Assembly: GCA_916048095.2 (NCBI GenBank)
Contig: OU696585.1
Location: 3,404,145-3,468,144, forward strand
Length of the DNA stretch: 64,000 bases
DNA from: Sacculina carcini
Lineage: Eukaryota; Arthropoda; Thecostraca; Sacculinidae
Reading direction: 5' to 3'
Numbering within the stretch: position 1 is the stretch's first letter; each line of letters begins with the position of its first letter. The notes under the pieces were generated by a model. It ran no database searches and was not told the origin of the DNA. It saw only the letters and a program-made list of their open reading frames with translations. This document shows positions 814 to 47,764 of this stretch, in pieces. Made by a program: the position numbers and the translations under genes.

Positions 814-1227
814 TCACCGAAAACTTTGAAACAAACCTTTCTATATATGCTTAATTTTACCCGGATTATTCTAACCTCAAGTACCTATTAGTTATTTTTC
901 ACGAGATTTCATTGGGGATATTTTTACGAAATAAATAGTTTTTTATGTATTGAACAAAAAACAGCAAAATCTGGGTTTTGTGAGTAATAGACTCACTGAA
1001 AACTGTGAAACAAACATTTATATATAATTAATTTACCGAATTATTTTAACCTCAAGTGCCGATTACCTGTTTTCCACGAGTTTTCACTGGGAATAATATT
1101 TACGAGATAGCGAGTATAGTAGTTGTGGTTGACGCAGTCATTCCTGAACTGAATTGCGGTAGTGAAGCATCGTTTTCACACACTGTCAATTTTGATCTAG
1201 CGTCGAAGGTGAATACCTGAAGACACC
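814..1227 (+). promoter_or_regulatory. Conserved 5' flank (presumed promoter/5'UTR) of chimera copy 1
   Basis: About 410 bp is nearly identical in front of all three chimera copies (also 21226-21639 and 44944-45361). It ends in 'gaagacaccATG', a reasonable animal translation start context. I see no clear TATA box in the last 150 bp. A promoter role is inferred only from position and conservation. The TA-rich part may be neutral. Confidence 0.4.
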
Positions 1228-4200
1228 ATGCAAGCAATGCACAGCAAAAGCGATATTGATGAAGCATTCATCAAACACCTAGCCTGGACCGGTGTTACCG
1301 AAGAGGCAGCAAAGTTATGTGTCCACTACAACATCTCTTCAAAGTGGAGCATGCTTTCCAACTGGAGGAAGACCATCCGCCAGTGTCCCGCGCACTATGT
1401 GCGCTATATCAAGATCTACTCGGCGAAAATGATCACCCAGAAGCCCAGCAAAGTTCTCGCCATGTGTGGCAAGCATACCACTTTGCTGAAGGATTTGGAG
1501 ATTTCGCTACGTATGTACACCAGATGGTGGCAATTAGATTTTGTACAGCAGCAACAAGGGGTCATTGTTCTGCTCGACTACATGAATATTGTACTGTCGG
1601 CCAAAGAACGCGTTGACCAAAAAGAGAAAACAGCCGTTCAAACCTGCTGTATGCAGATCTTCAAAACATCAAACACCAAAAAGACCACTCGGATGGCCAA
1701 TGCACAACAGGTGTTAAGCCTATGTGTGCTCTGCCTCAAAGCAATAGTCAGTGAGAGGCAATCACTCAGCAAAATTGTGCTGGATCGGGATAATACCCTG
1801 GTACTGGTACGTTGCGTGGACTTTATCCAGCAAGAGGCCACTGCATCGACCATTATGGGCATTTTGAAAAAGCTGGCCAAAATCAACCCGTATGTCAGCG
1901 CAACAATTCAAGAAGTTCGCTACGTGGATCTCAGCACGCGTGAGATTGGTCAGTTGAGCAAGTTAGTCACGAATTTCGATGAGCCTGGACCTCGATCACC
2001 ATACATCGATTACTCTGATATTCCTCGGGTACTAAACTGGGTTGTTTGTGAGGATATCGGAATATCTAGCCGTCAGTGTGACATACAGCCAATAAGCAGA
2101 ACAGTAATGCTCTTCAGTGAAATGTTAAAGGCATTGGACCTGATAGAAAACATATGTTCAGACAGTGTAATGAACAAACATCAGGCCAACGAAGACGTTA
2201 GGAAATCTACGAACAACGGTATTGGTAGAAAGAGCAGAAACGCAACCGATAAAGTGGTTTTTGTAAATAGTGACGTGTCACTGTCAATGTCCACTGATTT
2301 CATAATACCACCGCCATCATCACGATCACTATCATTACTACCACAACCACAACCACTACCATCACCTTCACCACTACCACCACCATCACCATCGTCGTCG
2401 ACCCTTCCATCAGCTGTTGTGTGCCGAGGAGACCCGCAGCCCTTCCTTGGACCAGCCGAGTCGACGCGCCCAGGCGACCAGCAGACCGGCCATCTCGACC
2501 GGGCGTCGCCACAGGTCCTCCAGCTGAAGACCCGTGGGCATGTTTGGGCAGCGGAACAGATGGGGAATTGTTCCACTACATATTTGACATGTCGAGGGTC
2601 CCGGATTCTCCTCGATGTCACCAGCGGGGCAGATGAAGTTCACCGGCCACGCTCCGGCACGCGAAGATCGACCGACACAAAAAATGATGCAGGGCTTCCA
2701 GATTTTGGATGCGGGAGAGATTTACATGATTTGAGCAGAGTCCCTCTGGGTATGCTGCAGTCCAACCGCGTGCAGACCGAGGACCTCCGGACTCTACCGT
2801 CACCATCACCACCACAATCACCACGACTACAATCACCATCATCACCACAATCATCATCATCATTATCATCACCACAATCATCATCACCACCACAATCATC
2901 ATCACCACCACAACCATCATCATCACCATTATCACCACAATCATCATCATCATCATCATCACCACCACAACCATCATCATCACCATTATCACCACAATCA
3001 TCAACATCACCGACATCATCTCCGCTACTTCCACCGTCGCGATTTATTCCTCACGCTACATCTAGTCTTGTTTCGCGTAATAAGTTATTGAAGAGAAAAC
3101 GCACAGGCGAGATAGTGGCGCAGACACATCTGAGCTCTGACTCAACAAATGGTGAACTTCACACCGACACCAGCACCAAGTCGATGAAGATGTCGGACAA
3201 AGTTGGTGTTGACGCGGTGGAGCCGGCACTCGTGGTCATCCCCACCAGCAACAAGACTGTCAGTGTGGATCTGGTTCCTGCCGGGACCGTAACCGAGGCG
3301 ATGGACGCGACCACACCATCGCCACCATCATCATTAGCATTATCAACATCATCTCCATCATCATATCCGCTACTTCAACCGTGGCGATGTCTTCGTCACG
3401 CTACGTTTAGTATTGTTTCGCGGAACAAGTTATTGAACAGTAAGCGTACTGAAGAGCTATCATCATCACCGACACAACCATCATCCCCCAGACTGCCATC
3501 ACCTCCATCACCATCACCAGTATCATCACCATCAACAGTATCATCATCACCACCATCATCTCCGCTACGTCAACCGTACCGATTTAGTCGTCACGCTACG
3601 TTTAGTCTTGTTTCGCGTAACCAGTTATTGAAGAGAAACCGCACAGGCCAGCTACTGGCGCCGACGCATCTGCGCTCTGACTCAATCAATGGTGCACTTA
3701 ACACCGACACCATCACTAAGTCTATAAAGATGTCCGGCAAAGGTAGTGTTGACGCGGTGGAGCCGGCACTCGTGGTCGTCTCCACCAGCAACGAGACGGT
3801 CAGTGTGGATCTAGCTCCTGCTGGGACCGCTAACGAGACGATGGACGCGGCCACATCATCACCACCATCATCACCACTATCACCATCACCAGTATCATCA
3901 TCATCTCGAACATCAACAGTATCATCATCACCACCATCATCACCAGTAACATCATCGCCATCATCTCCGCTACTTAAGCCGTGGCGATTTCTTCGTCACG
4001 GTACGCTTAGCCTTGTTTCGCGTGAGAAGCTATTGAAGAGAAAGCGCTCTGGAAAGCTACCATCACCACGATCACGACCATCATCTCCATCATCAACAGG
4101 GGCACCCTCATCACAATCACCACGACTACCATCACCGCCATCACCACCATCATCACAACCATCATCGCCCCGACTACCATCACCATCATCACCACTATCA

Positions 4201-7200
4201 CCATCATCTCGAACATCAACAGTATCATCATCACCACCATCATCTCCGCTACTACAACCGTGGCGATTTCTTCGTCACGGTACGCTTAGCCTTGTTTCGC
4301 GTAAGAAGTTATTGAAGAGAAGGAACAATGGCGAGCTAGTGGCGCAGACGCATATGACCTCTGACTCAATCAGCGGTAAAATCCACACCGACACCACCAC
4401 TGAGTCGATGAAGATGTCAGGCAAAGCTGGTGTTGACGCGGTGGAGACGGCAGCCGTGGTCGTCTCCACCATCAAAGAGACGGTCAGTGTGGACCAGGAT
4501 CCTGCTGGGACAGCGACGGAGGCGATTAACGCGGTCACACTATCGCCACCATCATCACCACTACCATCATCGCCATCATCTCCGCTACTTAAACCGTGGC
4601 AATTTCTTCGTCACGGTACGCTTAGCCTTGTTTCGCGCAAGAAGTTATTGAAGCGAAAGCGCAATGGCAAGCTAGTGGCGCAGACGCATCTTCGCTCCAA
4701 CTCAATCAACGGTCAAATCCACACCGACGCCACCACTAAATCGAAGATGTCTGGCAAAGTTGGTGTTGACACATTGGAGCCGGTACTCGTGGTAGTCTCC
4801 ACCAGCAACGAGTCGGTCTGTGTGGATCTAGCTCCTGCTGGGACCGCGACCGAGGCGATGGACGCGGCCACATCATCACCACCATCATCACCAGTAACAT
4901 CATCGCCATCATCTCAGCTACTTAAGCCGTGGCGATTTCTTCGTCACGGTACGCTTAGCCTTGTTTCGCGTAAGAAGTTATTGAAGAGAAAGCGCTCTGG
5001 AAAGCTACCATCACCACGATCACGACCATCATCTCCATCATCAACAGGGGCACCCTCATCACAATCACCACGACTACAATCACCGCCATCACCACCATCA
5101 TCACAACCATCATCGCCCCGACTACCATCACCATCATCGCCCCGACTACCATCACCATCATCACCACTATCACCATCATATCGAACATCAACAGTATCAT
5201 CATCACCACCATCATCTCCGCTACTACAGCCGTGGCGATTTCTTCGTCACGGTACGCTTAGCCTTGTTTCGCGTAAGAAGTTATTGAAGAGGAAGCGCAA
5301 TGGCAAGCTAGCGGCACAGACGCATCTGCACTCTGACTCAACCAACGGTAAACCCCACACCGACACCACCACTAAGTCGGGCAATGTTGGTGTTGACGCG
5401 GTGGAGCCGGCTCTCGCCGTCGTCCCCACTAGCAAAGGGACGGTCAGTATGGACTTGGTTCCTGTTGGGACCGCGACCGAGGCGACAGACGCGGCCGCAC
5501 ACCCCATCCAATATTCACTGAACGATTTTGAAATGATCCGGGTGATTGGACGCGGCGGCTATGGTAAGGTTTTGATGGTGGAGCTGCGACGAAATCGGCG
5601 CGTCTACGCCATGAAGGTGATCAAGAAGAAGCTGATCACCGACAACAAAGATATCGGTCGGGTGCAGACCGAGAAACACGTGTTTGAGACGGCGTCCAAC
5701 CACCCGTTCCTGGTAGGAATGCACTCTTGCTTCCAAAGTCCCAGTCGGCTGTTCTTCGTGAATGAGTTTGTGAGCGGCGGCGACCTCATGTTTCACATGC
5801 AGCGCTACGGCAAACTGTCCAAGAAGCAGGTCAAGTTCTACTCGGCAGAGCTCTGCCTGGCGCTCAACTTTCTGCATGGAAACGGTATCATCCACCGTGA
5901 CCTCAAGTTGGAAAATGTCCTGATCGACCAAGAGGGACACATTAAGCTCAATGACTACGGTATATGCAAGGAAGGAATGCGGCCAGGTGACACAACGTCC
6001 ACATTCTGCGGCACGCCCCGCTACATGGCGCCGGAGATGGTGCTTGACAAGGGTTATGGCTTCAGTGTGGACTGGTGGGCGTTGGGCGTGCTCATGTTCG
6101 AGATGCTGACTGATCGCAATCCGTTCGAAATTGGTAATCATTCTGAAGCACCCAATGAGAATAACATCGACTATCTCTATCGAATGCTCGTCAAGACCAT
6201 CCACATTCCGCGCTCTATGTCGGTGAATGCGCGACAAATCCTGAAGGGGCTTCTAAAAAACAACCCGGTGGAGCGACTGGGCTGTCATCCGGACACCGGC
6301 TTCAAAGACATCGTTGGACATGCGTTCTTCAATAGTGTCGACTGGCAGCGTTTGGAGCAGAAGCAAGTGACGCCCCCGTACAAGCCACGCGTCAAGACCG
6401 AACTTGATCTGGCCAACTTTCCGTCCCTCATCACAGACGAGCCGGTGCGACTGACAACCGAAAACACAAGCGCCATTGAAAAAATCGACCAGAGCCAATT
6501 TGACGGTTTTGATTATGTAAGCCCGTTGCAAATATCGCTATCAATGTCATCACCCACACCATCTGCACGACCACCATCTCCATTACAATCACCATCACCA
6601 CATATATCTCCGCTACAACCGTCGCCATTTCCTCGTCACCCTACGTTGAGGCCAGTGTCGCGTAACAAGTTATTGAAGGGAAAGCACGCTGGCAAACCAG
6701 TGGCGCGGAAGCATCTGCGCTGTGACCCAACCAAGGGTAAACTACACACCAACACCACCACGAAGTCGATGAAGATATCGGCCAAAGTTGGAGTTGACGC
6801 GGTGGAGCCGGCTCTCGCCGTTGTCCCTACCATCACTAAAACGGCCAGTGTGGACCCGGTTCCTGCTGGGGCCAAGGCCATTCTCCCCAGTCAGTATTCG
6901 CTGGCCGATTTTGATCTGATCCGCGTGATTGGACGCGGCGGATTCGGCAAAGTGATGATGGTGGAATTACGACGCACTCGGCGCGTCTACGCCATGAAGG
7001 CGATCAAGAAGAAGCTGATCAAGAATGCCAAGGATAAAGGCCGAGTGCAGACCGAGACACGCGTGTTTAAGATGGTGTCCAACCACCCGTTCCTGGTGGG
7101 AATGCACTCGTGCTTCCAAAGTCCCAGTCGGCTGTTCTTCGTGATTCAGTTTGTGCGCGGCGGCGACCTCATGTTTCATATGGAGCGTCACGGCAAACTG

Positions 7201-9309
7201 CCGGAGGAGCACGTCAAGTTCTACTCGGCGGAGCTGTGCCTGGCGCTTTACTTTCTGCATGATAACGGCATTATCCATCGTGATCTGAAGCTGGAAAATG
7301 TGCTGATCGACCACGAGGGACATATTAAGCTTATCGACTACGGCCTTTGCAAGGAAGGAATGCGACCAGGCAACACAACGTCCACCTTCTGCGGCACACC
7401 TCACTACATCGCTCCGGAGATACTGCTTGGCCAGAAATATAACTTCAGTGTTGATTGGTGGTCGCTGGGCGTGCTCATGTTTGAGATGCTCACTAATCGC
7501 ATTCCGTTCGAAACTGGCCATCATTCTAAAGCACAAAATGAGAAAACAAAGAACCATCTGTATCGGATAATTATCGAGAAGACCATCCGCATTCCACCCT
7601 CTTTGTCGGCGAATGCGCGCAAAATCCTGAGAGGTCTTCTAAAAAAGAACCCGGTAGAGCGACTGGGCTGTCAAACGAACACCGGCTTCAAAGACATCGT
7701 TGAACATGAGTTCTTCAACAGTGTTGACTGGCAGCTTTTGGTGCGGAAGCAAGTGAAACCGCCGTATAAGCCACACGTCAAGACCGAACGTGATCTGGCC
7801 AACTTTCCGTCCCTCTTCACAGACGAGCCGGCGCGGCTGACACCCGACAACACAAGCGCCATTGAAAAAATCGACCAGAGGCAATTTGACGGTTTTGATT
7901 ATGTCAACCCGTTGCTAATATCGCTATCACCGTCATCACCCACACCATCTGCGCGACCACCGTCTCCATTAAAACCACCATCACCACATATATCTCCGCT
8001 ACAACCGTCGCCATTTCCTCGTCACCCTACGTTGAGGCCAGAGTCGCGTAACAAGCAATTGAAGAGAAAGCACACTGGCAAACCAGTGGCGCAGAAGCAT
8101 CTGCGCTGTGACCCAGCCAAGGGTAAACTCCACACTAACACCACCACTAAGTCGATGAAGATATCGGCCAAAGTTGGAGTTGACGCGGTGGAGCCGGCTC
8201 TCGCCGCTGTCCCTACCATTACTAAAACGGCCAGTGTGGACCCGGCTCCTGCTGGGGCCGCGGCCATTCTCTCCAGTCAGTATTCGCTGGCCGATTTCGA
8301 TCTGATCCGCGTGATTGGACGCGGCGGATTCGGCAAAGTGATGATGGTGGAATTACGACGCACTCGGCGCGTCTACGCCATGAAGGCGATCAAGAAGAAG
8401 CTGATCAAGAATGCCAAGGATATCGGCCGCGTGAAGACCGAGACACACGTGTTTAAGATGGCGTTCAACCACCCGTTCCTGGTGGGACTGCACTCGTGCT
8501 TCCAAAGTCCCAGTCAGCTGTTCTTCGTGATTCAGTTTGTGCGCGGCGGCGACCTCAGGTTTCATATAAAGCGTAACGGCAAACTGCCGGAGGAGCACGT
8601 CAAGTTCTACTCGGCGGAGCTCTGCCTGGCCCTGAACTTTCTGCACGAGTACGGCATTATCCATCGTGATCTGAAGCCGGAAAATGTGTTGATCGACCAC
8701 GACGGACATATCAAGCTTATCGACTACGGCATTTGCAAGAAAGGAATGCGACCAGGTGACAGAACGTCCACCTTCTGCGGCACGCCCCACTACATCGCGC
8801 CGGAGATGTTGCTTGGCCAGAAATATAACTTCAGTGTTGATTGGTGGTCGCTGGGCGTGCTAATGTTTGAGATGCTCACTAATCGCAGTCCGTTCGAAAA
8901 TGGCCATCATTCTAAAGCACCCAATGAGAAAACCAAGAACCATCTGTATCGGATAATTCTCGAGAAGACCATCCGCATTCCGCCCTCTTTGTCGGCGAAT
9001 GCGCGCAAAATCCTGAGACGTCTTCTAAAAAAGAACCCGGTAGAGCGACTGGGCTGTCATCCGGACACCGGCTTCATAGACATCGTTGGGCATGAGTTCT
9101 TCAACAGTGTTGACTGGCAGCTTTTGGTGAGGAAGCAAGTGAAGCCGCCGTACAAGCCACGCGTCAAGAGCGAACGTGATCTGGCCAACTTTCCGTCCCT
9201 CTTCACCGACCAGCAGGTGCGGCTCACACCCGAAAAGAAATGCTGCATCGAACAAATCGACCAGAGACAGTTTGACGGATTCGATTATGTGAACCCGTTG
9301 ATGATGTAG
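1228..9309 (+). CDS. Formin GBD/FH3 - Ser/Pro repeat - triple aPKC-like kinase chimera, copy 1
   Basis: A single 2693-residue frame without introns. Residues about 8-235 match the GTPase-binding and FH3 (armadillo) start of DAAM/FMNL-type formins: [16 protein letters not shown], a [10 protein letters not shown] helix and a [18 protein letters not shown] helix. FH1 and FH2 are absent. Residues about 340-1425 are Ser/Pro-rich from TCA/CCA triplets, with ten repeats of a basic motif like [14 protein letters not shown]. Three aPKC-like kinase domains follow, beginning at Y1429, Y1890 and Y2352. Each has an intact GRGG(Y/F)GKV loop, catalytic Lys (K1463, K1924, K2386), HRD Asp (D1558, D2019, D2481), DYG Asp (D1576, D2037, D2499), a TSTFCGTP activation loop, and an acidic hydrophobic motif (FDGFDYV) typical of aPKC tails. 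The PB1 and C1 domains of true aPKC are missing. All three domains look catalytically competent. The biological role is unknown. The lack of introns suggests retro-origin. Confidence 0.85.
2410..2700 (-). mobile_element. Antisense retrotransposon fossil with 2A motif inside chimera copy 1
   Basis: On the minus strand the coding DNA of residues about 396-490 reads as a retrotransposon-like peptide. It contains GDIEENPGP (2596-2622), an exact 2A (D-x-E-x-N-P-G-P) ribosome-skipping motif, followed by a CQIC...RC cysteine pattern. Some non-LTR retrotransposons carry 2A at the start of an ORF. The sense strand is open and part of the chimera, so this looks like an antisense insertion that was absorbed into the coding frame. 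The 2A motif itself is not expected to be expressed here. Confidence 0.65.
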
Positions 9310-15427: not shown

Positions 15428-16351
15428 TCACTGGTGTGTCAGCCGGTTCCACTGCAGGCGATCAGTAGCCGTTGCAGCTGCACTACTAAGCGTCAGACCG
15501 AGCCGCTGCAGGTCTTCCTCCATCTGCTGCCGGTAAGTGAAACGCAGGGCACCGCCCCGACGTCGTGGCTCGGTAGGCGGACTGGACAACACGACAGCCA
15601 GCGGCACATCAGGCCGGCGCAGCACATGTCCCAGTAGTGTCAGTCTCCTCGTGCGCAGAGTACGAGACACCTGCACCGCGCCAGTCTGAGCGTAGAGGCT
15701 GCTGCTGGTAACAATTGTTGGGTAGCGGACACCAGCGCAATACCGTAGGAGAGCACGATGTCCCGCATCGACTTCCTCACTCAGCGTCTCTGTTAATGCC
15801 CACGTTTCGCCACCATAAATCAGTGTGGACTGCACACAGGCAGCGAACAGACCAATTTTGGCCTGTATTGATGCGTTTGAAGTCCAAACACTGGAAAGGA
15901 TACCGAGATAGGAAAAGTCAGCGGTGAGTTTTAGCAGAGCACCCGATTTCGTCTTGATGGTGGCTGTGTCTTCGCTGCCTACCGCCATGTATTCACATTT
16001 GGCTTCATTTAAATGCAGCCCGACCGTTGATGCAACGTCCTCGAACCGGTCCAGCTGACTCTGCGCGTCTGCTGCATTGTCGGCAACAATGGCGATATCA
16101 TCAGCATATGCCAGAGCGCAGAATCTAACTGCAGGATATCGTGATGACAGTCGGCGGCGCACTGTGTAGGCACTACTGTCCAGCAGACTGCGTCGCATTA
16201 CGTAGACCATGACTATGATGAATAAATATGGCGCCAGAGTATCGCCCTGCAAAACGCCAGTGCTTGTGTCGAATGGCTTCGTCAGACCGCAGGGTGTCCG
16301 CACACGAGCGGTGGTGTCCGTGTAGAGGCTCATGACGGCGTCGACAAACAT
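15428..16351 (-). CDS. Non-LTR retrotransposon reverse transcriptase (5'-truncated)
   Basis: An open frame of 307 codons on the minus strand. It carries the RT blocks GVLQGDTLAPYLF and AYADDIA (catalytic YADD), a LHLNEAKCEYM thumb-side block, and a C-terminal part with LIYGGETWAL and LTLLGHVLRRPD, typical of non-LTR retrotransposon RTs. The endonuclease and N-terminal RT blocks are missing, so this is a 5'-truncated copy of a longer ORF. Its 3' side runs towards a (CAT)n tract at 15340-15362, which might be its tail. It is a different family from the L2/CR1-like copies in this window. The exact clade cannot be given without a tree. Confidence 0.8.
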   Translation of the reverse strand: MFVDAVMSLYTDTTARVRTPCGLTKPFDTSTGVLQGDTLAPYLFIIVMVYVMRRSLLDSSAYTVRRRLSSRYPAVRFCALAYADDIAIVADNAADAQSQLDRFEDVASTVGLHLNEAKCEYMAVGSEDTATIKTKSGALLKLTADFSYLGILSSVWTSNASIQAKIGLFAACVQSTLIYGGETWALTETLSEEVDAGHRALLRYCAGVRYPTIVTSSSLYAQTGAVQVSRTLRTRRLTLLGHVLRRPDVPLAVVLSSPPTEPRRRGGALRFTYRQQMEEDLQRLGLTLSSAAATATDRLQWNRLTHQ

Positions 16352-16479: not shown

Positions 16480-18490
16480 GTGTATATTCCTGTGTAATCG
16501 CAAGTGCGCATAATAGCTGTCAAATTTGTAATATGTGCTTTTGACTTTACACCGCCGTAACTTCCTTCAGATACACTTTGGAAAATTACTAATTATACCG
16601 TATTGTAGAAAACAAGATTTCTAGCACGATGATATAATATATTTTTATGTGTTACAAATATTTACTGAGAAATAGTAGAAAAAGGAATAAATTTCAGTCG
16701 CCCGGTGTTCAAGTGCAATTTTGGATGTATTTGAGAATTTTGCCAATTTTACACGTTTTTTTATAATTTGTGGGTATAAATTATAGCTTATCTTGTAGAA
16801 CACAAAACTATCTACACAGTAGTATATTCCTGTTTAATCGCAAGTGCGCATAATAGCTGTCAAATTGGCAATATGTCCTTTTGACTTTACACCGTCGAAA
16901 CTTCCTTCAGATACACTTTGGAAAATTACAAATTATTCCGTATTGTAGAAAACAAGATTTCTAGCACGATGGTATAATTTATTTTTATGTGTAACAATTA
17001 TTTACTGAGAAATAGTAGAAAAATGAATATATTTTAGTCGCCCGGTGTTCAAGTGTAATTTTGGATGTAATTGAGAATTTTGCCAATTTTACACGTTTTT
17101 GTATCATTTGTGGGTATAAATTATAACTTATATTGTAGAACACAAAATTCTCTACACAGTAGTATATTCTTGTGTAATCGCAAGTGCGTAAATTGTGATT
17201 GGACTTCAGTGAAATTAAATCAGCGTATATTCCTGTGTAATCGCAAGTGCGCATAATAGCTGTCAAATTGGCAACATGACATTTTGACTTTACACCACCG
17301 TAACTCCCTTTAGATACATTTTGGAAAATTAAAAATTCCACCGTATTGTAGAAAACCAAATTTCTAGCACGATGGTATAATTCATTTTAATTTGTGACAA
17401 TTAGTTATTGAGAAATACGTAGAAAAATGAATTAATTTTAGTCACCCGGTGTTCAAGTGAATTTGGGATGTATTTGCGGATTTTGCCAATTTTACACGTT
17501 TTTTGTATCATTTGTGGGTATAAATTATAACTTATCTTGTAGAACACAAGATTATCTACACAGTAGTATATTCCTGTGTAATCGCAAATGCGCATAATAG
17601 CTGTCAAATTGGCAAAATGTCTTTTTGACTTTACACCGCCGTAACTTCCTACAGATATACTTTGGAAAATTAAAAATTATACCCTATTGTAGAAAACAAA
17701 ATTTCTAGCACGATGAGACAATTTATTTTTATATATAGCGAATAGTTACTGAGAAATACAAGAAAAATAAATAAATTTTAGTCACCCGGTGTTCAAGTGT
17801 AATTTTGGATGTATTTGAGAATTTTGCCAATTGTACACGTTTTTTGTATGATTTGTGGGTATAAATTATAACTTTTCTTGTAGAACACAAAATTATCTAC
17901 ACAATAGTATAATTTTTATAGCTGTACCATTGCTGGTTAATGAGGAATAGATAGCGGAATATTGACCAAAATATTCACGTTTTTTGTGCTAATTTTGCCT
18001 TTTTGCTTTTTTGTCATTTACACTTCACACCGCCGTAACTTTTGTTTAATACACTTTCGAAAATTAAAAATTATGCCGTGTTGTAGCAAACAAAATTCCC
18101 AGCATGATGGTATTATTTATTTAGATGTGTGATTATTAATTTTTGAGAAATAGAGAAAAAAGTATAGAAAATCGGACGCGTGGAGTTTAAATAAAATTTT
18201 GAATGTAGATTGATTGTTTTCCATTTTACATGTTTTATATTCAATTTTTGGGTATAAATTATAATTCGTTGAGTAGAAAAGAAAATTTTCTACACAGTGG
18301 TATACTTTTTGTAGTTGTACTATTGCTGGTTTAGGAGAAGTAGTTTTCAGAAAATTGACCAAAATTTTCGCATTTTTCAGGGATCATTTTGTCTTTTCAC
18401 CGCTATAACTTTTTTTGATTTCATTTTTGAAATTTAAAATTTAATCTAAAGTGTAGACAAGAAAATTTCCAACGTGATGGTATAAATTGT
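16480..18490. repeat. ~340 bp satellite array
   Basis: The block 'gtaatcgcaagtgcgcataatagctgtcaaatt' recurs at about 16493, 16833, 17233 and 17575, giving a ~340 bp unit with a 60 bp partial repeat at 17171. More diverged units continue to about 18490 and match window positions 1-660. No coding potential. Confidence 0.8.
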
Positions 18491-21639: not shown

Positions 21640-24600
21640 ATGCAAGCAATGCACAGCAAAAGCGATATTGATGAAGCATTCATCAAACACCTAGCCTGGA
21701 CCGGTGTTACCGAAGAGGCAGCAAAGTTATGTGTCCACTACAACATCTCTTCAAAGTGGAGCATGCTTTCCAACTGGAGGAAGACCATCCGCCAGTGTCC
21801 CGCGTACTATGTGCGCTGTATCAAGATCTACTCGGCGAAAATGATCACCCAGAAGCCCAGCAAAGTTCTCGCCATGTGTGGCAAGCATACCACTTTGCTG
21901 AAGGATTTGGAGATTTCGCTACGTACGTACACCAGATGGTGGCAATTAGAGTTTGTACAGCAGCAACAAGGGGTCATTGTTCTGCTCGACTACATGAATA
22001 TTGTACTGTCCGCCAAAGAACGCGTTGACCAAAAAGAGAAAACAGCCGTTCAAACCTGCTGTATGCAGATCTTCAAAACATCAAACACCAAAAAGACCAC
22101 TCGGATGGCCAATGCACAACAGGTGTTAAACATATGTGTGCTCTGCCTCAAAGCAATAGTCAGTGAGAGGCAATCACTCAGCAAAATTGTGCTGGATCGG
22201 GATAATACCCTGGTACTGGTACGTTGCGTGGACTTTATCCAGCAAGAGGCCACTGCATCGACCATTATGGGCATTTTGAAAAAACTGGCCAAAATCAACC
22301 CGTATGTCAGCGCAACCATTCAAGAGGTTCGCTACATGGATCTCAGCACGCGTGAGATTGGTCAGTTAAGCAAGTTAGTCACGAATTTCGACGAGCCTGG
22401 ACCTCGATCACCATACATCGATTACTCTGATATTCCTCGGGTACTCAACTGGGTTGTTTGCGAGGATATCGGAATATCTAGCCGTCAGTGTGACATACAG
22501 CCAATAAGCAGAACAGTAATGCTCTTCAGTGAAATGTTAAAGGCATTGGACCTGATAGAAAACATATGTTCAGACAGTGTAATGAACAAACATCAAGCCA
22601 ACGAAGACGTTAGGAAATCTACGAACAACGGTATTTGTAGAAAGAGAAGAAACGCAACCGATAAAGTGGTTTTTGTAAATAGTGACGTATCACTGTCAAT
22701 GTCCACTGATTTCATAATACCACCGCCATCATCACGATCACTATCATTACTACCACAACCACAACCACTACCATCACCTTCACCACTACCACCACCATCA
22801 CCATCGTCGTCGACCCTCCCATCAGCTGTTGTGTGCCGAGGAGACCCGCAGCCCTTCCTCGGACCAGCCGAGTCGACGCGCCCAGGCGACCAGCAGACCG
22901 GCCATCTCGACCGGGCGTCGCCACAGGTCTTCCAGCTGAAGACCCGTGGGCATGTTTGGGCAGCGGAACAGATGCGGAATCGTTCCACTACATATTTGAC
23001 ATGTCGAGGGTCCCGGATTCTCCTCGATGTCACCGGCGAGGCAGATGAAGTTCACCGGCCACGCTCCGGCACGCGAAGATCGACCGACACAAAAAATGAT
23101 GCAGGGCTTCCAGATTTTGGATGCGGGAGAGATTTACATGATTTGAGCAGAGTCCCTCTGGGTATGCTGCAGTCCAACCGCGTGCAGACCGAGGACCTCC
23201 GGACTCTACCGTCTCCATCACCACCACAATCACCACGACTACCATCACCATCATCACCACAATCATCATCATCATTATCATCACCACAATCATCATCACC
23301 ACCACAATCATCATCATCACCATTATCACCACAATCATCATCATCATCATCATCATCACCACCACAACCATCATCATCACCATTATCACCACAATGGTCA
23401 ACATCACCGCCATCATCTCCGCTACTTCCACCGTCGCGATTTATTCCTCACGCTACATCTAGTCTTGTTTCGCGTAATAAGTTATTGAAGAGAAAACGCA
23501 CAGGCGAGATAGTGGCGCAGACACATCTGAGCTCTGACTCAACAAATGGTGAGCTTCACACCGACACCAACACCAAGTCGATTAAGATGTCGGACAAAGT
23601 TGGTGTTGAGGCGGTGGAGCCGGCACTCGTGGTCATCCCCACCAGCAACAAGACTGTCAGTGTGGATCTGGTTCCTGCCGGGACCGCAACCGAGGCGATG
23701 GACGCGACCACACCATCGCCACCATCATCAGCAGCATCATCAACATCATCTCCATCATCATATCCGCTACTTCAACCGTGGCGATGTCTTCGTCACGCTA
23801 CGTTTAGTATTGTTTCGCGGAACAAGTTATTGAACAGTAAGCGTACTGAAGAGCTATCATCATCACCGACACCACCATCATCCCCCCGACTGCCATCACC
23901 TCCATCACCATCACCAGTATCATCACCATCAACAGTATCATCATCACCACCATCATCTCCGCTACGTCAACCGTACCGATTTAGTCGTCACGCTACGTTT
24001 AGTCTTGTTTCGCGTCACCAGTTATTGAAGAGAAAACGCACAGGCCAGCTACTGGCGCCGACGCATCTGCGCTCTGACTCAATCAATGGTGCACTTCACA
24101 CCGACACCATCACTAAGTCTATAAAGATGTCCGGCAAAGGTAGTGTTGACGCGGTGGAGCCGGCACTCGTGGTCGTCTCCACCAGCAACGAGACGGTCAG
24201 TGTGGATCTAGCTCCTGCTGGGACCGCTAACGAGACGATGGACGCGGCCACATCATCACCACCATCATCACCACTATCACCATCACCAGTATCATCATCA
24301 TCTCGAACATCAACAGTATCATCATCACCACCATCATCACCGCTACTACAACCGTGGCGATTTCTTCGTCACGGTACATTTAGCCTTGTTTCGCGTAGGA
24401 AGTTATTGAAGAGAAAGAGCAATGGAGATCTAAGGGCGCAGACGCATATGAGCTCTGACTCAATCAGCGGTAAAATCCACACCGACACCACCACTAAGTC
24501 GACGAAGATGTCAGGAAAAGTTGGTGTTGACGCGGTGGAGTCGGCAGCCGTGGTCGTCTCCACCATCAAAGAGACAGTCAGTGTGGACCAGGTTCCTGCT

Positions 24601-27600
24601 GGGACAGCGACAGAGGCGATGATCGCGGTCACACTATCGCCACCATCATCACCACTATCATCATCGCCATCATCTCCGCTACTTAAACCGTGGCAATTTC
24701 TTCGTCACGGTACGCTTAGCCTTGTTTCGCACAAGAAGTTATTGAAGCGAAAGCGCAATGGCAAGCTAGTGGCGCAGAAGCATCTGCGCTCCGACTCAAT
24801 CAACGGTCAACTCCACACCGACGCCACCACTAAATCGAAGATGTCTGGAAAAGTTAGTGTTGCCACATTGGAGCCGGTACTCGTGGTAGTCTCCACCAGC
24901 AACGAGTCGGTCTGTGTTGATCTAGCTCCTGCTGGGACCGCAACCGAGGCGATGGACGCGGCCACATCATCACCACCATCATCACCAGTAACATCATCGC
25001 CATCATCTCCGCTACTTAAGCCGTGGCGATTTCTTCGTCACGGTACGCTTAGCCTTGTTTCGCGTAAGAAGTTATTGAAGAGAAAGCGCTCTGGAAAGCT
25101 GCCATCACCACGATCACGACCATCATCTCCATCATCAACAGGGGCACCCTCATCACAATCACCACGACTACCATCACCGCCATCACCACCATCATCACAA
25201 CCATCATCACCACTATCACCATCATCTCGAACATCAACAGTATCATCATCACCACCATCATCTCCGCTACTACAACCGTGGCGATTTCTTCGTCACGGTA
25301 CGCTTAGCCTTGTTTCGCGTAAGAAGTTATTGAAGAGAAGGAGCAATGGCGAGCTAGTGGCGCAGACGCATATGACCTCTGACTCAATCAGCGGTAAAAT
25401 CCACACCGACACCACCACTGAGTCGATGAAGGCAAAGTTGGCAAAGTTGTCAGGCAAAGTTGGTGTTGACGCGTTGGAGTCGGCAGCCGTGGTCGTCTCC
25501 ACCATCAAAGAGACGGTCAGTGTGGACCAGGTTCCTGCTGGGACAGCGACGGAGGCGATGAACGCGGTCACACTATCGCCACCATCATCACCACTACCAT
25601 CATCGCCATCATCTCCGCTACTTAAACCGTGGCAATTTCTTCGTCACGGTACGCTTAGCCTTGTTTCGCGCAAGAAGTTATTGAAGCGAAAGCGCAATGG
25701 CAAGCTAGTGGCGCAGACGCATCTTCGCTCCAACTCAATCAACGGTCAAATCCACACCGACGCCACCACTAAATCGAAGATGACTGGCAAAGTTGGTGTT
25801 GACACATTGGAGCCGGTACTCGTGGTAGTCTCCACCAGCAACGAGTCGGTCTGTGTGGATCTAGCTCCTGCTGGGACCGCGACCGAGGCGATGGACGCGG
25901 CCACATCATCACCACCATCATCACCAGTAACATCATCGCCATCATCTCCGCTACTTAAGCCGTGGCGATTTCTTCGTCACGGTACGCTTAGCCTTGTTTC
26001 GCGTAAGAAGTTATTGAAGAGAAAGCGCTCTGGAAAGCTACCATCACCACGATCACGACCATCATCTCCATCATCAACAGGGGCACCCTCATCACAATCA
26101 CCACGACTACAATCACCGCCATCACCACCATCATCACAACCATCATCGCCCCGACTACCATCACCATCATCACAACTATCACCATCATCTCGAACATCAA
26201 CAATATCATCATCACCACCATCATCTCCGCTACTACAGCCGTGGCGATTTCTTCGTCACGGTACGCTTAGCCTTGTTTCGCGTAAGAAGTTATTGAAGAG
26301 GAAGCGCAATGGCAAGCTAGCGGCACAGACGCATCTGCACTCTGACTCAACCAACGGTAAACCCCACACCGACACCACCACTAAGTCGGGCAATGTTGGT
26401 GTTGACGCGGTGGAGCCGGCTCTCGCGGTCGTCCCCACTAGCAAAGGGACGGTCAGTATGGACTTGGTTCCTGTTGGGACCGCGACCGAGGCGACAGACG
26501 CGGCCGCACACCCCATCCAATATTCACTGACCGATTTTGAAATGATCCGGGTGATTGGACGCGGCGGCTATGGTAAGGTTTTGATGGTGGAGCTGCGACG
26601 AAATCGGCGCGTCTACGCCATGAAGGTGATCAAGAAGAAGCTGATCACCGACAACAAAGATATCGGTCGGGTGCAGACCGAGAAACACGTGTTTGAGACG
26701 GCGTCCAACCACCCGTTCCTGGTAGGAATGCACTCGTGCTTCCAAAGTCCCAGTCGGCTGTTCTTCGTGAATGAGTTTGTGAGCGGCGGCGACCTCATGT
26801 TTCACATGCAGCGCTACGGCAAACTGTCCGAGAAGCAGGTCAAGTTCTACTCGGCAGAGCTCTGCCTGGCGCTCAACTTTCTGCATGGAAACGGTATCAT
26901 CCACCGTGACCTCAAGTTGGAAAATGTCCTGATCGACCAAGAGGGACACATTAAGCTCAATGACTACGGCATATGCAAGGAAGGAATGCGGCCAGGTGAC
27001 ACAACGTCCACATTCTGCGGCACGCCCCGCTACATGGCGCCGGAGATGGTGCTTGACGAGGGTTATGGCTTCAGTGTGGACTGGTGGGCGTTGGGCGTGC
27101 TCATGTTCGAGATGCTGACTGATCGCAATCCGTTCGAAATTGGTAATCATTCTGAAGCACCCAATGAGAATAACATCGACTATCTCTATCGAATGCTCAT
27201 CAATACCATCCACGTTCCGCACTCTATGTCGGTGAATGCGCGACAGATCCTGAAGGGGCTTCTGAAAAACAACCCGGTGGAGCGACTGGGCTGTCATCCG
27301 GACACCGGCTTCAAAGACATCGTTGGACATGCGTTCTTCAATAGTGTCGACTGGCAGCGTTTGGAGCAGAAGCAAGTGACGCCCCCGTACAAGCCAAGCG
27401 TCAAGACCGAACTTGATCTGGCCAACTTTCCGTCCCTCATCACAGACGAGCCGGTGCGACTGACACCCGAAAACACAAGCGCCATTGAAAAAATCGACCA
27501 GAGCCAATTTGACGGTTTTGATTATGTCAACCCGTTGCTAATATCGCTATCACCGTCATCACCCACACCATCTGCACGACCACCGTCTCCATTACAATCA

Positions 27601-30318
27601 CCATCACCACATATATCTCCGCTACAACCGTCGCCATTTCCTCGTCACCCTACGTTGAGGCCAGTGTCGCGTAACAAGTTATTGAAGGGAAAGCACGCTG
27701 GCAAACCAGTGGCGCGGAAGCATCTGCGCTGTGACCCAACCAAGGGTAAACTACACACCAATACCACCACGAAGTCGATGAAGATATCGGCCAAAGTTGG
27801 AGTTGACGCGGTGGAGCCGGCTCTCGCCGTTGTCCCTACCATCACTAAAACGGCCAGTGTGGACCCGGTTCCTGCTGGGGCCGCGGCCATTCTCCCCAGT
27901 CAGTATTCGCTGGCCGATTTTGATCTGATCCGCGTGATTGGACGCGGCGGATTCGGCAAAGTGATGATGGTGGAGTTACGACGCACTCGGCGCGTCTACG
28001 CCATGAAGGCGATCAAAAAAAAGCTGATCAAGAAACCCAAGGATAAAGGCCGAGTGCAGACCGAGACACGCGTGTTTAAGATGGTGTCCAACCACCCGTT
28101 CCTGGTGGGAATGCACTCGTGCTTCCAAAGTCCCAGTCGGCTGTTCTTCGTGATTCAGTTTGTGCGCGGCGGCGACCTCATGTTTCATATGGAGCGTCAC
28201 GGCAAACTGCCGGAGGAGCACGTCAAGTTCTACTCGGCGGAGCTGTGCCTGGCGCTTAACTTTCTGCATGATAACGGCATTATCCATCGTGACCTGAAGC
28301 TGGAAAATGTGCTGATCGACCACAAGGGACATATTAAGCTTATCGACTACGGCCTTTGCAAGGAAGGAATGCGACCAGGCAACACAACGTCCACCTTCTG
28401 CGGCACACCTCACTACATCGCTCCGGAGATATTGCTTGGCCAGAAATATAACTTCAGTGTTGATTGGTGGTCGCTGGGCGTGCTCATGTTTGAGATGCTC
28501 ACTAATCGCATTCCGTTCGAAACTGGCCATCATTCTAAAGCACAAAATGAGAAAACAAAGAACCATCTGTATCGGATAATTATCGAGAAGACCATCCGCA
28601 TTCCGCCCTCTTTGTCGGCGAATGCGCGCAAAATCCTGAGAGGTCTTCTAAAAAAGAACCCGGTAGAGCGACTGGGCTGTCAAACGACCACCGGCTTCAA
28701 AGACATCGTTGAGCATGAGTTCTTCAACAGTGTTGACTGGCAGCTTTTGGTGCGGAAGCAAGTGAAGCCGCCGTATAAGCCACACGTCAAGACCGAACGT
28801 GATCTGGCCAACTTTCCGTCCCTCTTCACAGACGAGCCGGCGCGGCTGACACCCGACAACACAAGCGCCATTGAAAAAATCGACCAGAGGCAATTTGACG
28901 GTTTTGATTATGTCAACCCGTTGCTAATATCGCTATCACCGTCATCACCCACACCATCTGCGCGACCACCGTCTCCATTAAAACCACCATCACCACATAT
29001 ATCTCCGCTACAACCGTCGCCATTTCCTCGTCACCCTACCTTGAGGCCAGTGTCGCGTAACAAGCAATTGAAGAGAAAGCACACTGGCAAACCAGTGGCG
29101 CAGAAGCATCTGCGCTGTGACCCAGCCAAGGGTAAACTCCACACTAACACCACCACTAAGTCGATGAAGATATCGGCCAAAGTTGGAGTTGACGCGGTGG
29201 AGCCGGCTCTCGCCGCTGTCCCTACCATTACTAAAACGGCCAGTGTGGACCCGGCTCCTGCTGGGGCCGCGGCCATTCTCTCCAGTCAGTATTCGCTGGC
29301 CGATTTCGATCTGATCCGCGTGATTGGACGCGGCGGATTCGGCAAAGTGATGATGGTGGAATTACGACGCACTCGGCGCGTCTACGCCATGAAGGCGATC
29401 AAGAAGAAGCTGATCAAGAATGCCAAGGATATCGGCCGCGTGAAGACCGAGACACACGTGTTTAAGATGGCGTTCAACCACCCGTTCCTGGTGGGACTGC
29501 ACTCGTGCTTCCAAAGTCCCAGTCAGCTGTTCTTCGTGATTCAGTTTGTGCGCGGCGGCGACCTCAGGTTTCATATAAAGCGTAACGGCAAACTGCCGGA
29601 GGAGCACGTCAAGTTCTACTCGGCGGAGCTCTGCCTGGCCCTGAACTTTCTGCACGAGTACGGCATTATCCATCGTGATCTGAAGCCGGAAAATGTGTTG
29701 ATCGACCACGACGGACATATCAAGCTTATCGACTACGGCATTTGCAAGAAAGGAATGCGACCAGGCGACAGAACGTCCACCTTCTGCGGCACGCCCCACT
29801 ACATCGCGCCGGAGATGTTGCTTGGCCAGAAATATAACTTCAGTGTTGATTGGTGGTCGCTGGGCGTGCTAATGTTTGAGATGCTCACTAATCGCAGTCC
29901 GTTCGAAATTGGCCATCATTCTAAAGCACCCAATGAGAAAACCAAGAACCATCTGTATCGGATAATTCTCGAGAAGACCATCCGCATTCCGCCCTCTTTG
30001 TCGGCGAATGCGCGCAAAATCCTGAGAAGTCTTCTAAAAAAGAACCCGGTAGAGCGACTGGGCTGTCATCCGGACACCGGCTTCATAGACATCGTTGGGC
30101 ATGAGTTCTTCAACAGTGTTGACTGGCAGCTTTTGGTGAGGAAGCAAGTGAAGCCGCCGTACAAGCCACGCGTCAAGAGCGAACGTGATCTGGCCAACTT
30201 TCCGTCCCTCTTCACCGACCAGCAGGTGCGGCTCACACCCGAAAAGAAATGCTGCATCGAACAAATCGACCAGAGACAGTTTGACGGATTCGATTATGTG
30301 AACCCGCTGATGATGTAG
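21640..30318 (+). CDS. Formin GBD/FH3 - Ser/Pro repeat - triple aPKC-like kinase chimera, copy 2
   Basis: 2892 residues in one uninterrupted frame, 199 longer than copy 1. The N-terminal GBD/FH3 part (residues about 8-235) differs from copy 1 at only a few positions. The Ser/Pro region has twelve basic-motif repeats against ten in copy 1, which explains the extra length. Kinase domains start at Y1628, Y2089 and Y2551. Their catalytic residues are all present: Lys K1662, K2123 and K2585; HRD Asp D1757, D2218 and D2680; DYG Asp D1775, D2236 and D2698. One repeat contains an inserted AKLAKLSGK stretch (about 25430-25460). The three-domain layout and exact spacing (461 and 462 residues) match copy 1. 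The open frame over 8.7 kb, despite many triplet repeats, argues that coding capacity has been preserved or that the copy is very recent. Confidence 0.85.
22822..23110 (-). mobile_element. Antisense retrotransposon fossil with 2A motif inside chimera copy 2
   Basis: Same as in copy 1. The minus strand reads GDIEENPGP at 23008-23034 and then a Cys-rich segment. In the sense direction it is part of the chimera frame. Confidence 0.65.
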
Positions 30319-37407: not shown

Positions 37408-37489
37408 CTGAGCGTCACACACACACACATTAAATACAAATAAAACCTAGATAAAAATAAATACTTTAACGTATTAATAGTTCAGTGTA

Positions 37490-38775: not shown

Positions 38776-38779
38776 TTAC

Positions 38780-45361: not shown

Positions 45362-47764
45362 ATGCAAGCAATGCACAGCAAAAGCGATATTGATGAAGCA
45401 TTCATCAAACACCTAGCCTGGACCGGTGTTACCGAAGAGGCAGCAAAGTTATGTGTCCACTACAACATCTCTTCAAAGTGGAGCATGCTTTCCAACTGGA
45501 GGAAGACCATCCGCCAGTGTCCCGCGTACTATGCGCGCTATATCAAGATCTACTCGGCGAAAATGATCACCCAGAAGCCAAGCAAAGCTCTCGCCATGTG
45601 TGGCAAGCATACCACTTTGCTGAAGGATTTGGAGATTTCGCTACGTACGTACACCAGATGGTGGCAATTAGAGTTTGTACAGCAGCAACAAGGGGTCATT
45701 GTTCTGCTCGACTACATGAATATTGTACTGTCGGCCAAAGAACGCGTTGACCAAAAAGAGAAAACAGCCGTTAAAACCTGCTGTATGCAGATCTTCAAAA
45801 CATCCAACACCAAAAAGACCACTCGGATGGCCAATACACAACAGGTGTTAAACCTATGTGTGCTCTGCCTCAAAGCAATAGTCAGTGAGAGGCAATCACT
45901 CAGCAAAATTGTGCTGGATAGGGATAATACCCTGGTACTGGTACGTTGCGTGGACTTTATCCAGCAAGAGCCCACTGCATCGACCATTATGGGCATTTTG
46001 AAAAAACTGGCCAAAATCAACCAGTATGTCAGCGCAACCATTCAAGAGGTTCGCTACATGGATCTCAGCACGCGTGAGATCGGTCAGTTAAGCAAGTTAG
46101 TCACGAATTTCGATGAGCCTGGACCTCGATCACCATACATCGATTACTCTGATATTCCTCGGGTACTCAACTGGGTTGTTTGTGAGGATATCGGAATATC
46201 TAGCCGTCAGTGTGACATACAGCCAATAAGCAGAACAGTAATGCTCTTCAGTGAAATGTTAAAGGCATTGGATCTGATAGAAAACATATGTTCAGACAGT
46301 GTAATGAACAAACATCAAGCCAACGAAGACGTTAGGAAATCTACGAGCAACGACATCGGTAGAAAGAGCAGAAGTGCAACCGATAAAGTGGTTTTTGTAA
46401 AAAGTGACGTATCACTGTCAATGTCCACTGATTCCATAATATCACCGCCATCATCACGATCACTATCATTACTACCACAACCACAACCACTACCATCACC
46501 TTCACCACTGCCACCACCATCACCATCGTCGTCGACCCTCCCATCAGCTGTTGTGTGCCGAGGAGACCCGCAGCCCTTCCTCGGACCAGCCGAGTCGACG
46601 CGCCCAGGCGACCAGCAGACCGGCCATCTCGACCGGGCGTCGCCACAGGTCCTCCAGCTGAAGACCCGTGGGCATGTTTGGGCAGCGGAACAGATGCGGT
46701 ATTGTTCCACTACATATCTGACATGTCGAGGGTCCCGAATTATCCTCGATGTCACCGGCGAGGCAGATGAAGTTCACCGGCCACGCTCCGGCACGCGCAG
46801 ATCGACCGACACAAAAAATGATGCAGGGCTTCGAGATTTTGGATGCGGGATATATTTCCATGATTTGAGCAGAGTCTCTCTGGGTATGCTGCAGTCCAAC
46901 CGCGTGCAGACCGAAGACGTTCGGACCCTACCGTCACCATCACCACCACAATTACCACGACTACCATCACCATCATCACCACCACAAGCATCCTCATCAT
47001 CACCATCACCACCACAATCATCATCACCACCACAACCATCATCATCACCATTATCACCACAACCATCATCATCACCATCATCACCACCACAACCATCATT
47101 ATCATCACCACAATCATCATCACCACCACAATCATCATCATCACCATTATCACCACAATCGTCAACATCACCACCATCATCTCCGCTACTTCCACCGTCG
47201 CGATTTATTCGTCACGCTACATCTAGTCTTGTTTCGCGTAATAAGTTATTGAAGAGTAAACGCACAGGCGAGATAGTGGCGCAGACACATCTGAGCTCTG
47301 ACTCAACAAATGGTGAACTTCACACCGACACCAACACCAAGTCGATGAAGATGTCGGACAAAGTTGGCGTTGACGCGGCGGAGCCGGCACTCGTGGTCAT
47401 CCCCACCAGCAACGAGACTGTCAGTGTGGGTCTGGTTCCTGCCGGGACCGCAACCGAGGCGATGGACGCGACCACACCATCGTCACCATCATCACCAGTG
47501 TCATCATCACCATCACCATCTCCATCATTATCTCCGCTACTTCAACCGTGGCCATGTCTTCGTCACGCTACGTTTAGTATTGTTTCGCTGAACAAGTTAT
47601 TGAACAGTAAGCGTACTGAAAAGCTATCATCATTACCGTCACCACCATCATCCCCCCCGACTGCCATCACCTCCATCACCATCACCAGTATCACCAGTAT
47701 CACCACCATCAACAGTATCATCATCACCACCATCATCTCCGCTACGTCAACCGTACCGATTTAG
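45362..47764 (+). pseudogene. Formin-aPKC chimera copy 3, N-terminal part (frameshifted)
   Basis: An 800-codon frame. It contains the GBD/FH3-like segment (residues about 8-235), the linker with the antisense retroelement stretch, and the first two basic-motif repeats. At 47652-47658 a run of seven C replaces the six of copy 2 (23882-23887). The frame shifts and codes for an unrelated Thr/Ile-rich tail that ends at 47764. Everything downstream, including the kinases, is in another frame. It may be a real inactivating mutation, a polymorphism or a sequencing error in a homopolymer. If real, the product would be a formin-like GBD/FH3 plus Ser/Pro region with no kinase. Confidence 0.8.
46544..46861 (-). 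mobile_element. Antisense retrotransposon fossil in chimera copy 3 (2A motif decayed)
   Basis: The minus strand reads the same retroelement segment as in copies 1 and 2. At 46730-46756 the 2A motif is GDIEDNSGP, so the essential NPGP has become NSGP. This fits a fossil that is not selected on the minus strand. The minus frame here extends further upstream ([15 protein letters not shown]). Confidence 0.6.

What the first reader, a model, noticed from the sequence alone, without database searches (positions are those of the whole stretch)
1228..9309. Giant intronless formin GBD/FH3 - tandem aPKC kinase chimera
The frame joins a formin regulatory N-terminus (no FH1/FH2) to three aPKC-like catalytic domains (no PB1/C1) through a 1000-residue Ser/Pro repeat region. 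I know of no described protein with this order. All three kinases keep Lys, HRD and DYG residues. Three copies lie within 52 kb, so the architecture is not an assembly chimera of one locus. It may represent a Rho-GTPase-responsive multi-kinase scaffold.
Basis: partly seen in the sequence, partly recalled or inferred. Interest (0 to 1): 0.92.

Follow-up and report, generated by a model that had tools for sequence, protein, structure and literature searches.

The report
Formin-headed aPKC kinase gene family
A probable barnacle genome carries many genes that join the GTPase-sensing front of an actin-building protein (a formin) to the working end of a cell-polarity kinase (aPKC), a protein layout for which we found no earlier description.

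Summary
The chimera is real. ORF 1228-9309 (2693 aa) joins a formin GBD/partial-FH3 head, a Ser/Pro linker and three aPKC catalytic domains. It is the giant form of a large family with uninterrupted coding frames: the head's top 106 genome matches (60-100% identity) lie on 23 contigs, 96 in frames of 600 aa or more without a stop in the match; 33 of 36 further loci read carry kinase. Core catalytic residues are complete in 59 of 62 kinases; median dN/dS is 0.28-0.46. The kinase donor is found: the genome's own aPKC on contig C8, whose last exon contains the captured stretch; 26 family kinases form one clade beside it. The nearest named aPKC is a goose barnacle's, so the host is probably a barnacle. 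Linker repeats are partly multiplied aPKC hinge. Related frames carry the head with FH2, Ulp1 protease, a doubtful PLC-X-like part, or alone. Best mechanism: small-GTPase-addressed aPKC without PB1/C1. GTPase binding, transcription and activity are untested; structure models failed; the formin-parent search did not complete.

The parts
1028..1227 (+). conserved upstream region of copy A (putative promoter/5'UTR), shared with other kinase members, a two-head member (L044) and an FH2 member (L046)
   Evidence: 22 upstream flanks were long enough; 19 of the 21 other than copy A score above all 60 shuffles (72-99% identity); L047 and L048 do not
1228..9309 (+). copy A, complete frame, 2693 aa
1228..1947 (+). 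formin (FMNL-type) GBD plus first FH3 armadillo repeats, residues 1-240
2308..5508 (+). Ser/Pro linker, residues 361-1427, with eight copies of an aPKC C1-tail/hinge motif beginning at residues 608, 723, 788, 923, 1016, 1128, 1239 and 1340
   Evidence: (one search counts from the open frame, five residues before the Met)
5509..6540 (+). aPKC kinase 1 with C-tail
   Evidence: PKC iota 6e-154 against PKC beta 7e-98
6892..7926 (+). aPKC kinase 2 with C-tail
8278..9303 (+). aPKC kinase 3 with C-tail
21640..30318 (+). copy B, complete frame, 2892 aa: head, linker, three kinases
45362..47764 (+). copy C, first frame: head and part of the linker, 800 aa
47805..52373 (+). copy C, second frame: rest of the linker and two kinases; the frame changes inside the linker

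Best explanation
A formin gene of FMNL type without introns in its coding frame (seen today as L046 and L048) lost its actin-polymerising FH2 half in one descendant and gained instead the last exon of the genome's own aPKC gene, from the last residues of the C1 domain onwards (hinge, kinase, C-tail). Because that part of the parent aPKC is a single exon, no mRNA step is needed for the kinase half. The fusion then spread as DNA copies together with its upstream region, in tandem arrays and to other contigs, and its kinase and hinge units multiplied inside the frame, giving forms with one to three kinases. Proposed mechanism (inferred): the head binds an active Rho-family GTPase at the membrane and so places aPKC catalytic domains there, without Par6/PB1 and without the C1/pseudosubstrate brake, much as PKN or PAK are GTPase-addressed kinases; a PDK1-like kinase would switch the domains on. 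Shown here: architecture, homology, kinase donor and single kinase origin, residue conservation, selective constraint, shared upstream region. Inferred: FH2 replacement, GTPase binding, membrane placement, kinase activity, transcription as one mRNA.
For: Head: profile of 27 heads hits FMNL1/2 at 9e-22/2e-21, INF2 at 2e-4 and mDia1 at 0.03. FH2 relative L046: Pfam FH2 3e-52, best PDB match FMNL3 1e-29, same upstream region, head 63% identical over residues 2-240 (59% in the longer alignment). Donor: own aPKC at G000:C8:6619770-6621170 (88% to P0005); in L056 a PB1-to-C1 exon, a putative GT-AG intron of about 272 bases (1234-1505), then one frame with the C1 end, hinge, kinase and tail. With it in the tree, the 26 family kinases lie on one side of a branch (100/99), own aPKC next (branch length 0), then P0005 (100/98) and Pollicipes P0107 (99/96). 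Kinase identity to the own aPKC 75-86% in five family kinases, each higher than to P0005; linker unit of copy A against the own hinge 47 of 73. Capture point: homology starts at P0005 residue 167-168, inside its C1 match 125-175. Activity residues over 62 full kinases of distinct loci: K/E/D/N/D complete in 59, T-loop T 50 or S 8, turn T 56, acidic hydrophobic motif 59. Selection: median dN/dS 0.34-0.43 for 56 kinases, 0.28-0.46 for 38 heads.
Against: No RNA evidence. K73 of FMNL2 is R in 23 of 27 heads and E111 is E in 24 of 27, but H222 is H in 12 of 27 (S in copy A) and R261 is R in 1 of 27 (positions mapped by eye with a numbering offset of 2, at which all four letters agree); E311, D360 and S361 lie outside the aligned part and D219 was not counted. 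So GTPase specificity, or binding at all, is uncertain. Some kinases look weakened: DYG Gly is His in 8 of 62; T-loop is neither T nor S in 4 of 62, two of them among five kinases with a split match. Twelve partial kinase stretches were left out of that count. Between A and B the linker shows 32 nonsynonymous to 9 synonymous changes (dN 0.014, dS 0.010). Drf_GBD stays below the Pfam cut-off in the window copies. Both structure models failed. The formin parent and its introns were not found because that search did not complete. Rows were chosen with readable frames, which favours low dN/dS.
Confidence: 0.62

Rival explanations
1. The family is kept by selfish copy-number growth (LINE-rich tandem arrays), with proteins of little use to the animal.
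For: More than 100 head matches, tandem arrays, reverse transcriptase frames between copies; some copies broken: copy C, and 4 of the top 106 head matches hold a stop (3 TAG, 1 TAA).
Against: Purifying selection on head and kinase, catalytic residues kept, upstream region shared. No transposase appeared in the eight window frames given to Pfam; terminal repeats were not searched for systematically.
Confidence: 0.15
2. The head no longer binds a GTPase; it targets the kinase by protein contacts of the armadillo repeats.
For: Cdc42-specific contacts are partly lost; FH3 repeats 4-5 are not recognisable.
Against: The head is the constant part in members with different tails; seven columns are invariant in 27 heads and the E111 position is E in 24 of 27.
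Confidence: 0.3
3. The linker motif (F-x-R-x-x-T-hydrophobic) is an array of aPKC phosphorylation sites or a membrane-binding basic-hydrophobic patch acting in cis.
For: 63 distinct segments keep F five before and S two after the T used as search anchor (84% and 86%), and R three before it (92%, though the search pattern asked for R or P there); 10 matches in copy A, 12 in B. The likeness to aPKC sites is recalled, not tested.
Against: Part of the motif is inherited C1 tail; no match in small members such as L014; the linker evolves fast; copies share the motif by descent.
Confidence: 0.25
4. Assembly or annotation artefact.
For: The three C31 head copies score alike, as do the two C6 copies.
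Against: Same architecture in copies whose heads are 60-79% identical, on many contigs.
Confidence: 0.02

Closest known systems
FMNL-type diaphanous-related formins
   Same: N-terminal GBD and first FH3 repeats; relatives L046 and L048 keep FH2
   Different: FH2 half absent, aPKC in its place; FH3 shortened
Atypical PKC (iota/zeta)
   Same: Kinase, T-loop, turn motif, acidic hydrophobic motif, DYG and hinge; derived from the genome's own aPKC
   Different: No PB1, no complete C1; up to three kinases in one frame; formin head
PKM-zeta (free aPKC catalytic fragment; recalled)
   Same: aPKC catalytic part without PB1/C1
   Different: Carries a new head and repeated kinases
PKN, PAK and ROCK Rho-effector kinases (recalled)
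   Same: Would be kinases addressed by a Rho-family GTPase
   Different: GTPase module is a formin GBD, not HR1 or CRIB
Expanded kinase families of Sacculina carcini (PMC9582164; abstract, passages and section 8 seen)
   Same: Barnacle; its two most strikingly expanded families have kinase domains
   Different: The text seen names no fusion; whether it is the same family or species is not tested

Membership tests
Diaphanous-related formin | GBD/FH3 head | tested here: met
   FMNL1/2 at 9e-22/2e-21 by profile; FH3 only in part
Diaphanous-related formin | FH2 actin-polymerising part | tested here: not met
   not listed for A, B or C; present in L046 and L048
Diaphanous-related formin | C-terminal DAD | not tested
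   no DAD scan was run
Formin GBD as Cdc42/Rho binder | reported GTPase contact residues | tested here: inconclusive
   K73 and E111 positions kept, H222 in 12 of 27, R261 in 1 of 27 (contacts from passages of PMC4432619)
Atypical PKC | kinase domain closest to PKC iota/zeta | tested here: met
Atypical PKC | PDK1 T-loop site, turn motif, acidic hydrophobic motif | tested here: met
   58 (T or S), 56 and 59 of 62 full kinases
Atypical PKC | PB1 domain | tested here: not met
   not listed for A, B or C; present in P0005 and P0107
Atypical PKC | C1 domain and pseudosubstrate | tested here: not met
   no Pfam C1; only the last C1 residues remain; the pseudosubstrate was not scanned separately
PKN Rho-effector kinase | HR1 repeats and C2-like domain | tested here: not met
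   neither in the Pfam list at E<=1
Rho-effector kinase (works like) | GTP-dependent binding of a Rho-family GTPase | not testable with these tools
   needs a binding assay

The most novel reading that the evidence does not exclude
A formin gene became a platform in one barnacle lineage: its actin-building half was swapped at least three times for unrelated enzymes (aPKC, a Ulp1-type SUMO protease, a PLC-X-like domain), making a genome-wide set of enzymes steered by one formin-type GTPase-binding head, the kinase branch alone reaching perhaps ninety genes (extrapolated from 33 of 36 loci read).
Probability: 0.4. Interest if true: 0.9.

Novelty: new variant of a known kind. Interest (0 to 1): 0.78.

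Why it matters
Cdc42 normally reaches aPKC through Par6 (recalled). A natural fusion of a formin GTPase-binding head to aPKC would join two polarity pathways in one chain and could show what minimal wiring a polarity kinase needs. The genome also keeps the steps side by side: the parent aPKC with its last exon, formins with FH2, fusions with one, two and three kinases, and other enzymes on the same head. That makes it a good case for how new multidomain genes form and spread. If the host is a rhizocephalan, it gives a concrete candidate for the kinase expansions reported in Sacculina.

Tried and rejected
Structure prediction: the head with three window copies gave mean pLDDT 41.2, linker plus kinase with eight window rows 29.8; no fold search was run on them.

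Retroposition of aPKC as source of the kinase half: held until one search found the own aPKC, whose last exon already holds the captured part; no longer needed. For the formin half it is neither shown nor excluded.

aPKC substrate array as origin of the linker repeats: weakened when the repeats proved partly homologous to the aPKC C1 tail and hinge. Viral origin: a scan of viral contigs found no relative (own-genome records may be left out there).

Database searches: head of copy C, no protein at E<=0.001 among 1885 candidates; head of L015, 2 proteins among 1092 candidates, both with formin domains; L014, 2111 proteins at E<=1e-20 of 7990 scored, of which only the best 120 were listed, none with Drf_GBD. 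So 'no earlier description' rests and on the listings of paper searches; subscription papers were not searchable.

Faults and selections in the counts. One search uses the first 106 rows (E<=1.2e-83, at least 198 of 241 residues); 12 further rows of 60% identity or more, shorter or weaker, were left out; 150 of 190 candidates were scored. First head tree: rows L052 and L053 were cut in a wrong frame and are void; one search replaces it. One search counted 59 kinases with two repeat fetches (L010, L035) in and five kinases with split matches out; one search replaces it. In one search the three rows named window are copy C kinases 1 and 2 and copy B kinase 3, by a clash of names; 21 family rows of 14 loci were picked; one search repeats the tree with 26 rows, clash mended, and 14 of 120 other aPKCs. 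Left out: L010 and L035; L009 and L032; L010, L032 and L035. In one search the 200 shuffles are of copy A's linker only, and only the best 16 of the matches of 118 hinges were printed.
Full report
The observation. The frame 1228-9309 codes for 2693 aa without interruption. Pfam finds three kinase domains, each with a Pkinase_C tail, and a sub-threshold Drf_GBD at residues 5-215; PB1, C1, HR1 and FH2 are not listed. Copy B (21640-30318, 2892 aa) has the same build. Copy C has the head in one frame and two kinases in another.

The head. Single-sequence search of the PDB gives FMNL2 1.3e-8 and FMNL1 1.9e-7. A profile of 27 heads from the genome gives FMNL1 9.1e-22, FMNL2 2.3e-21, INF2 from 1.9e-4 and mDia1 from 0.032; 15 of 16 chains at E<=1 are formins, the other is a telomere protein at 0.61. 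The match covers FMNL1 29-272; the paper on these structures puts the end of the last armadillo repeat of FMNL1 at 380 (PMC4432619; outline, abstract and passages seen), so FH3 is shortened. Pfam's Drf_GBD cut-off of 30.1 bits is passed by L014, L047, L050, L051, L052, L053, L054 and the two-head L028, not by L046, L048 and L049, nor by the window copies.

The kinases. Kinase 1 matches PKC iota at 6e-154, PKC beta at 7e-98; the kinase of L015 matches PKC iota at 9e-173. Among 62 full kinases of distinct loci, 59 keep all five of Lys, Glu, catalytic Asp, Asn and metal-binding Asp; the T-loop residue is Thr in 50, Ser in 8, other in 4; turn Thr in 56; acidic hydrophobic-motif residue in 59; DYG Gly is His in 8. 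Twelve partial stretches are not in this count.

The family. Searching the window's own assembly (264,436,087 bases, 43 contigs) with residues 1-241 scored 150 of 190 candidates. The first 106 rows (identity 60-100%, at least 198 residues) lie on 23 contigs; 102 hold no stop in the match, 99 have a frame of 600 aa or more, 96 both; median frame 925 aa. Three two-head genes give two rows each, so genes are slightly fewer; the tool calls such counts lower bounds. Forty-six loci were fetched for reading and one more later. Of 36 distinct loci from the close set, 33 carry kinase sequence and 3 do not (L028, L044, L046); full kinases per frame range from one to three. Neighbouring copies on this contig start 20-51 kb apart.

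Other tails on the same head. L046 and L048: FH2 (3e-52, 9e-44). L050-L053: Peptidase_C48/Ulp1 (3e-15 to 8e-13); L050 matches SENP1 in the PDB at 2.5e-7. L047: PI-PLC-X, weak (Pfam 0.071 on the C-terminal part; PDB 0.006). L028 and L044: two heads and a Ser/Pro region, no kinase. L049 and L054: only the head was recognised; L055 is of the same kind by its match and its short frame.

The kinase donor. A late search found the genome's own aPKC at G000:C8:6619770-6621170, 88% identical to P0005. The locus (L056) has one frame with PB1 and the start of C1, a putative GT-AG intron of about 272 bases, and one frame with the rest of C1, hinge, kinase and tail to the stop. The homology of the family to P0005 begins at P0005 residues 167-168, eight residues before the end of its C1 match at 175, which is inside that last exon. 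So the kinase half can be a captured last exon; its lack of introns is no sign of an mRNA step. In a tree of 41 rows the 26 family kinases are on one side of a branch (100/99), the own aPKC next to it with branch length 0, then P0005 (100/98), then the aPKC of Pollicipes pollicipes (99/96). An earlier tree with 141 rows, all 120 listed aPKCs among them, gave the same order without the own gene. The linker units are aPKC hinge: 47 of 73 identical to the own hinge for one unit of copy A, 39 of 98 to P0005; of the best 16 matches printed for 118 aPKC hinges, only those of P0005 and P0107 beat their shuffles.

The host. The aPKC nearest by name is a goose barnacle's, and the hinge, which is poorly conserved among aPKCs, still matches it. 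I infer a barnacle. Size suggests a rhizocephalan: the Sacculina carcini draft is 298.35 Mb (PMC9582164; abstract, passages and section 8 seen); other barnacle genomes are recalled as larger. That paper says that its two most strikingly expanded families have protein kinase domains; the word formin does not occur in its main text. Whether it is this family is not tested.

Heads. In a head tree of 34 rows the genome's heads are one group against two FMNL-like outgroups (100/100, midpoint root), the two FH2 members lie in different places, the four Ulp1 members are one group (100/99), and the kinase group needs one change (72/0 support; 71% of 200 bootstrap trees). Long branches make the deep order unsure. 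The simplest reading is an ancestor with FH2 and repeated replacement. The upstream 200 bases are shared by kinase members, two-head L044 and FH2 member L046, not by L047 and L048; downstream 300 bases are clearly alike only among the closest copies and near the shuffles in many others. So the later spread was by DNA copies with the upstream region.

Constraint. Median dN/dS is 0.34-0.43 over four dS classes for 56 kinases and 0.28-0.46 over five classes for 38 heads. Between A and B the linker has 32 nonsynonymous and 9 synonymous changes; it does not look conserved. Within it the motif recurs eight times in copy A before kinase 1, and once before each of kinases 2 and 3. Five loci on C24, C31, C19 and C6 keep a 45-47-residue kinase C-tail without its catalytic core, which suggests that hinge arrays partly arose by loss of kinase cores.

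Mechanism. A formin head that reads an active Rho-family GTPase, fused to aPKC that lacks PB1 and most of C1, would be addressed by the GTPase instead of Par6. This is inference. The residue test against FMNL2-Cdc42 is mixed: the positions of K73 and E111 are kept (R in 23 of 27, E in 24 of 27), H222 in 12 of 27 and not in copy A, R261 in 1 of 27. The head may thus bind another GTPase or none.

Verdict. I rate it a new variant of a known kind (GTPase-effector kinase, by analogy with PKN and PAK, recalled) with a build unreported as far as can tell. Main gaps: no RNA, no binding test, no usable structure model, formin parent not found.

Noticed in passing
L050, L051, L052, L053: Formin-type head fused to a Ulp1-type SUMO protease in uninterrupted frames; further matches of similar frame length appear in the table (C18, C22, C9).
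   Followed up: partly
L047: Same head with a weak PI-PLC-X-like C-terminal part; two further matches with similar frames on C15.
   Followed up: partly
L028, L044: Two heads in tandem followed by a Ser/Pro region, no kinase.
   Followed up: no
L056 791-2904: The genome's own aPKC with, in the coding part seen, a single putative intron inside the C1 domain; intron-poor for an animal aPKC (recalled).
   Followed up: partly
window 15428-16351, 19187-20887, 40196-41083, 54569-57604: Reverse transcriptase (LINE-type) frames between the copies; 18955-21165 and 55623-57836 are inverted copies of 94% identity.
   Followed up: no
window 35479-37145 and 37460-38777: Minisatellite arrays with 14-base and 16-base units.
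   Followed up: no
window 16482-17188 and 17225-17911: Two tandem arrays with units of about 340 bases.
   Followed up: no
G000 C24, C31, C35: Some family copies lie close to contig ends (on C24 about 1.5 kb from the end), which may mean subtelomeric clusters.
   Followed up: no
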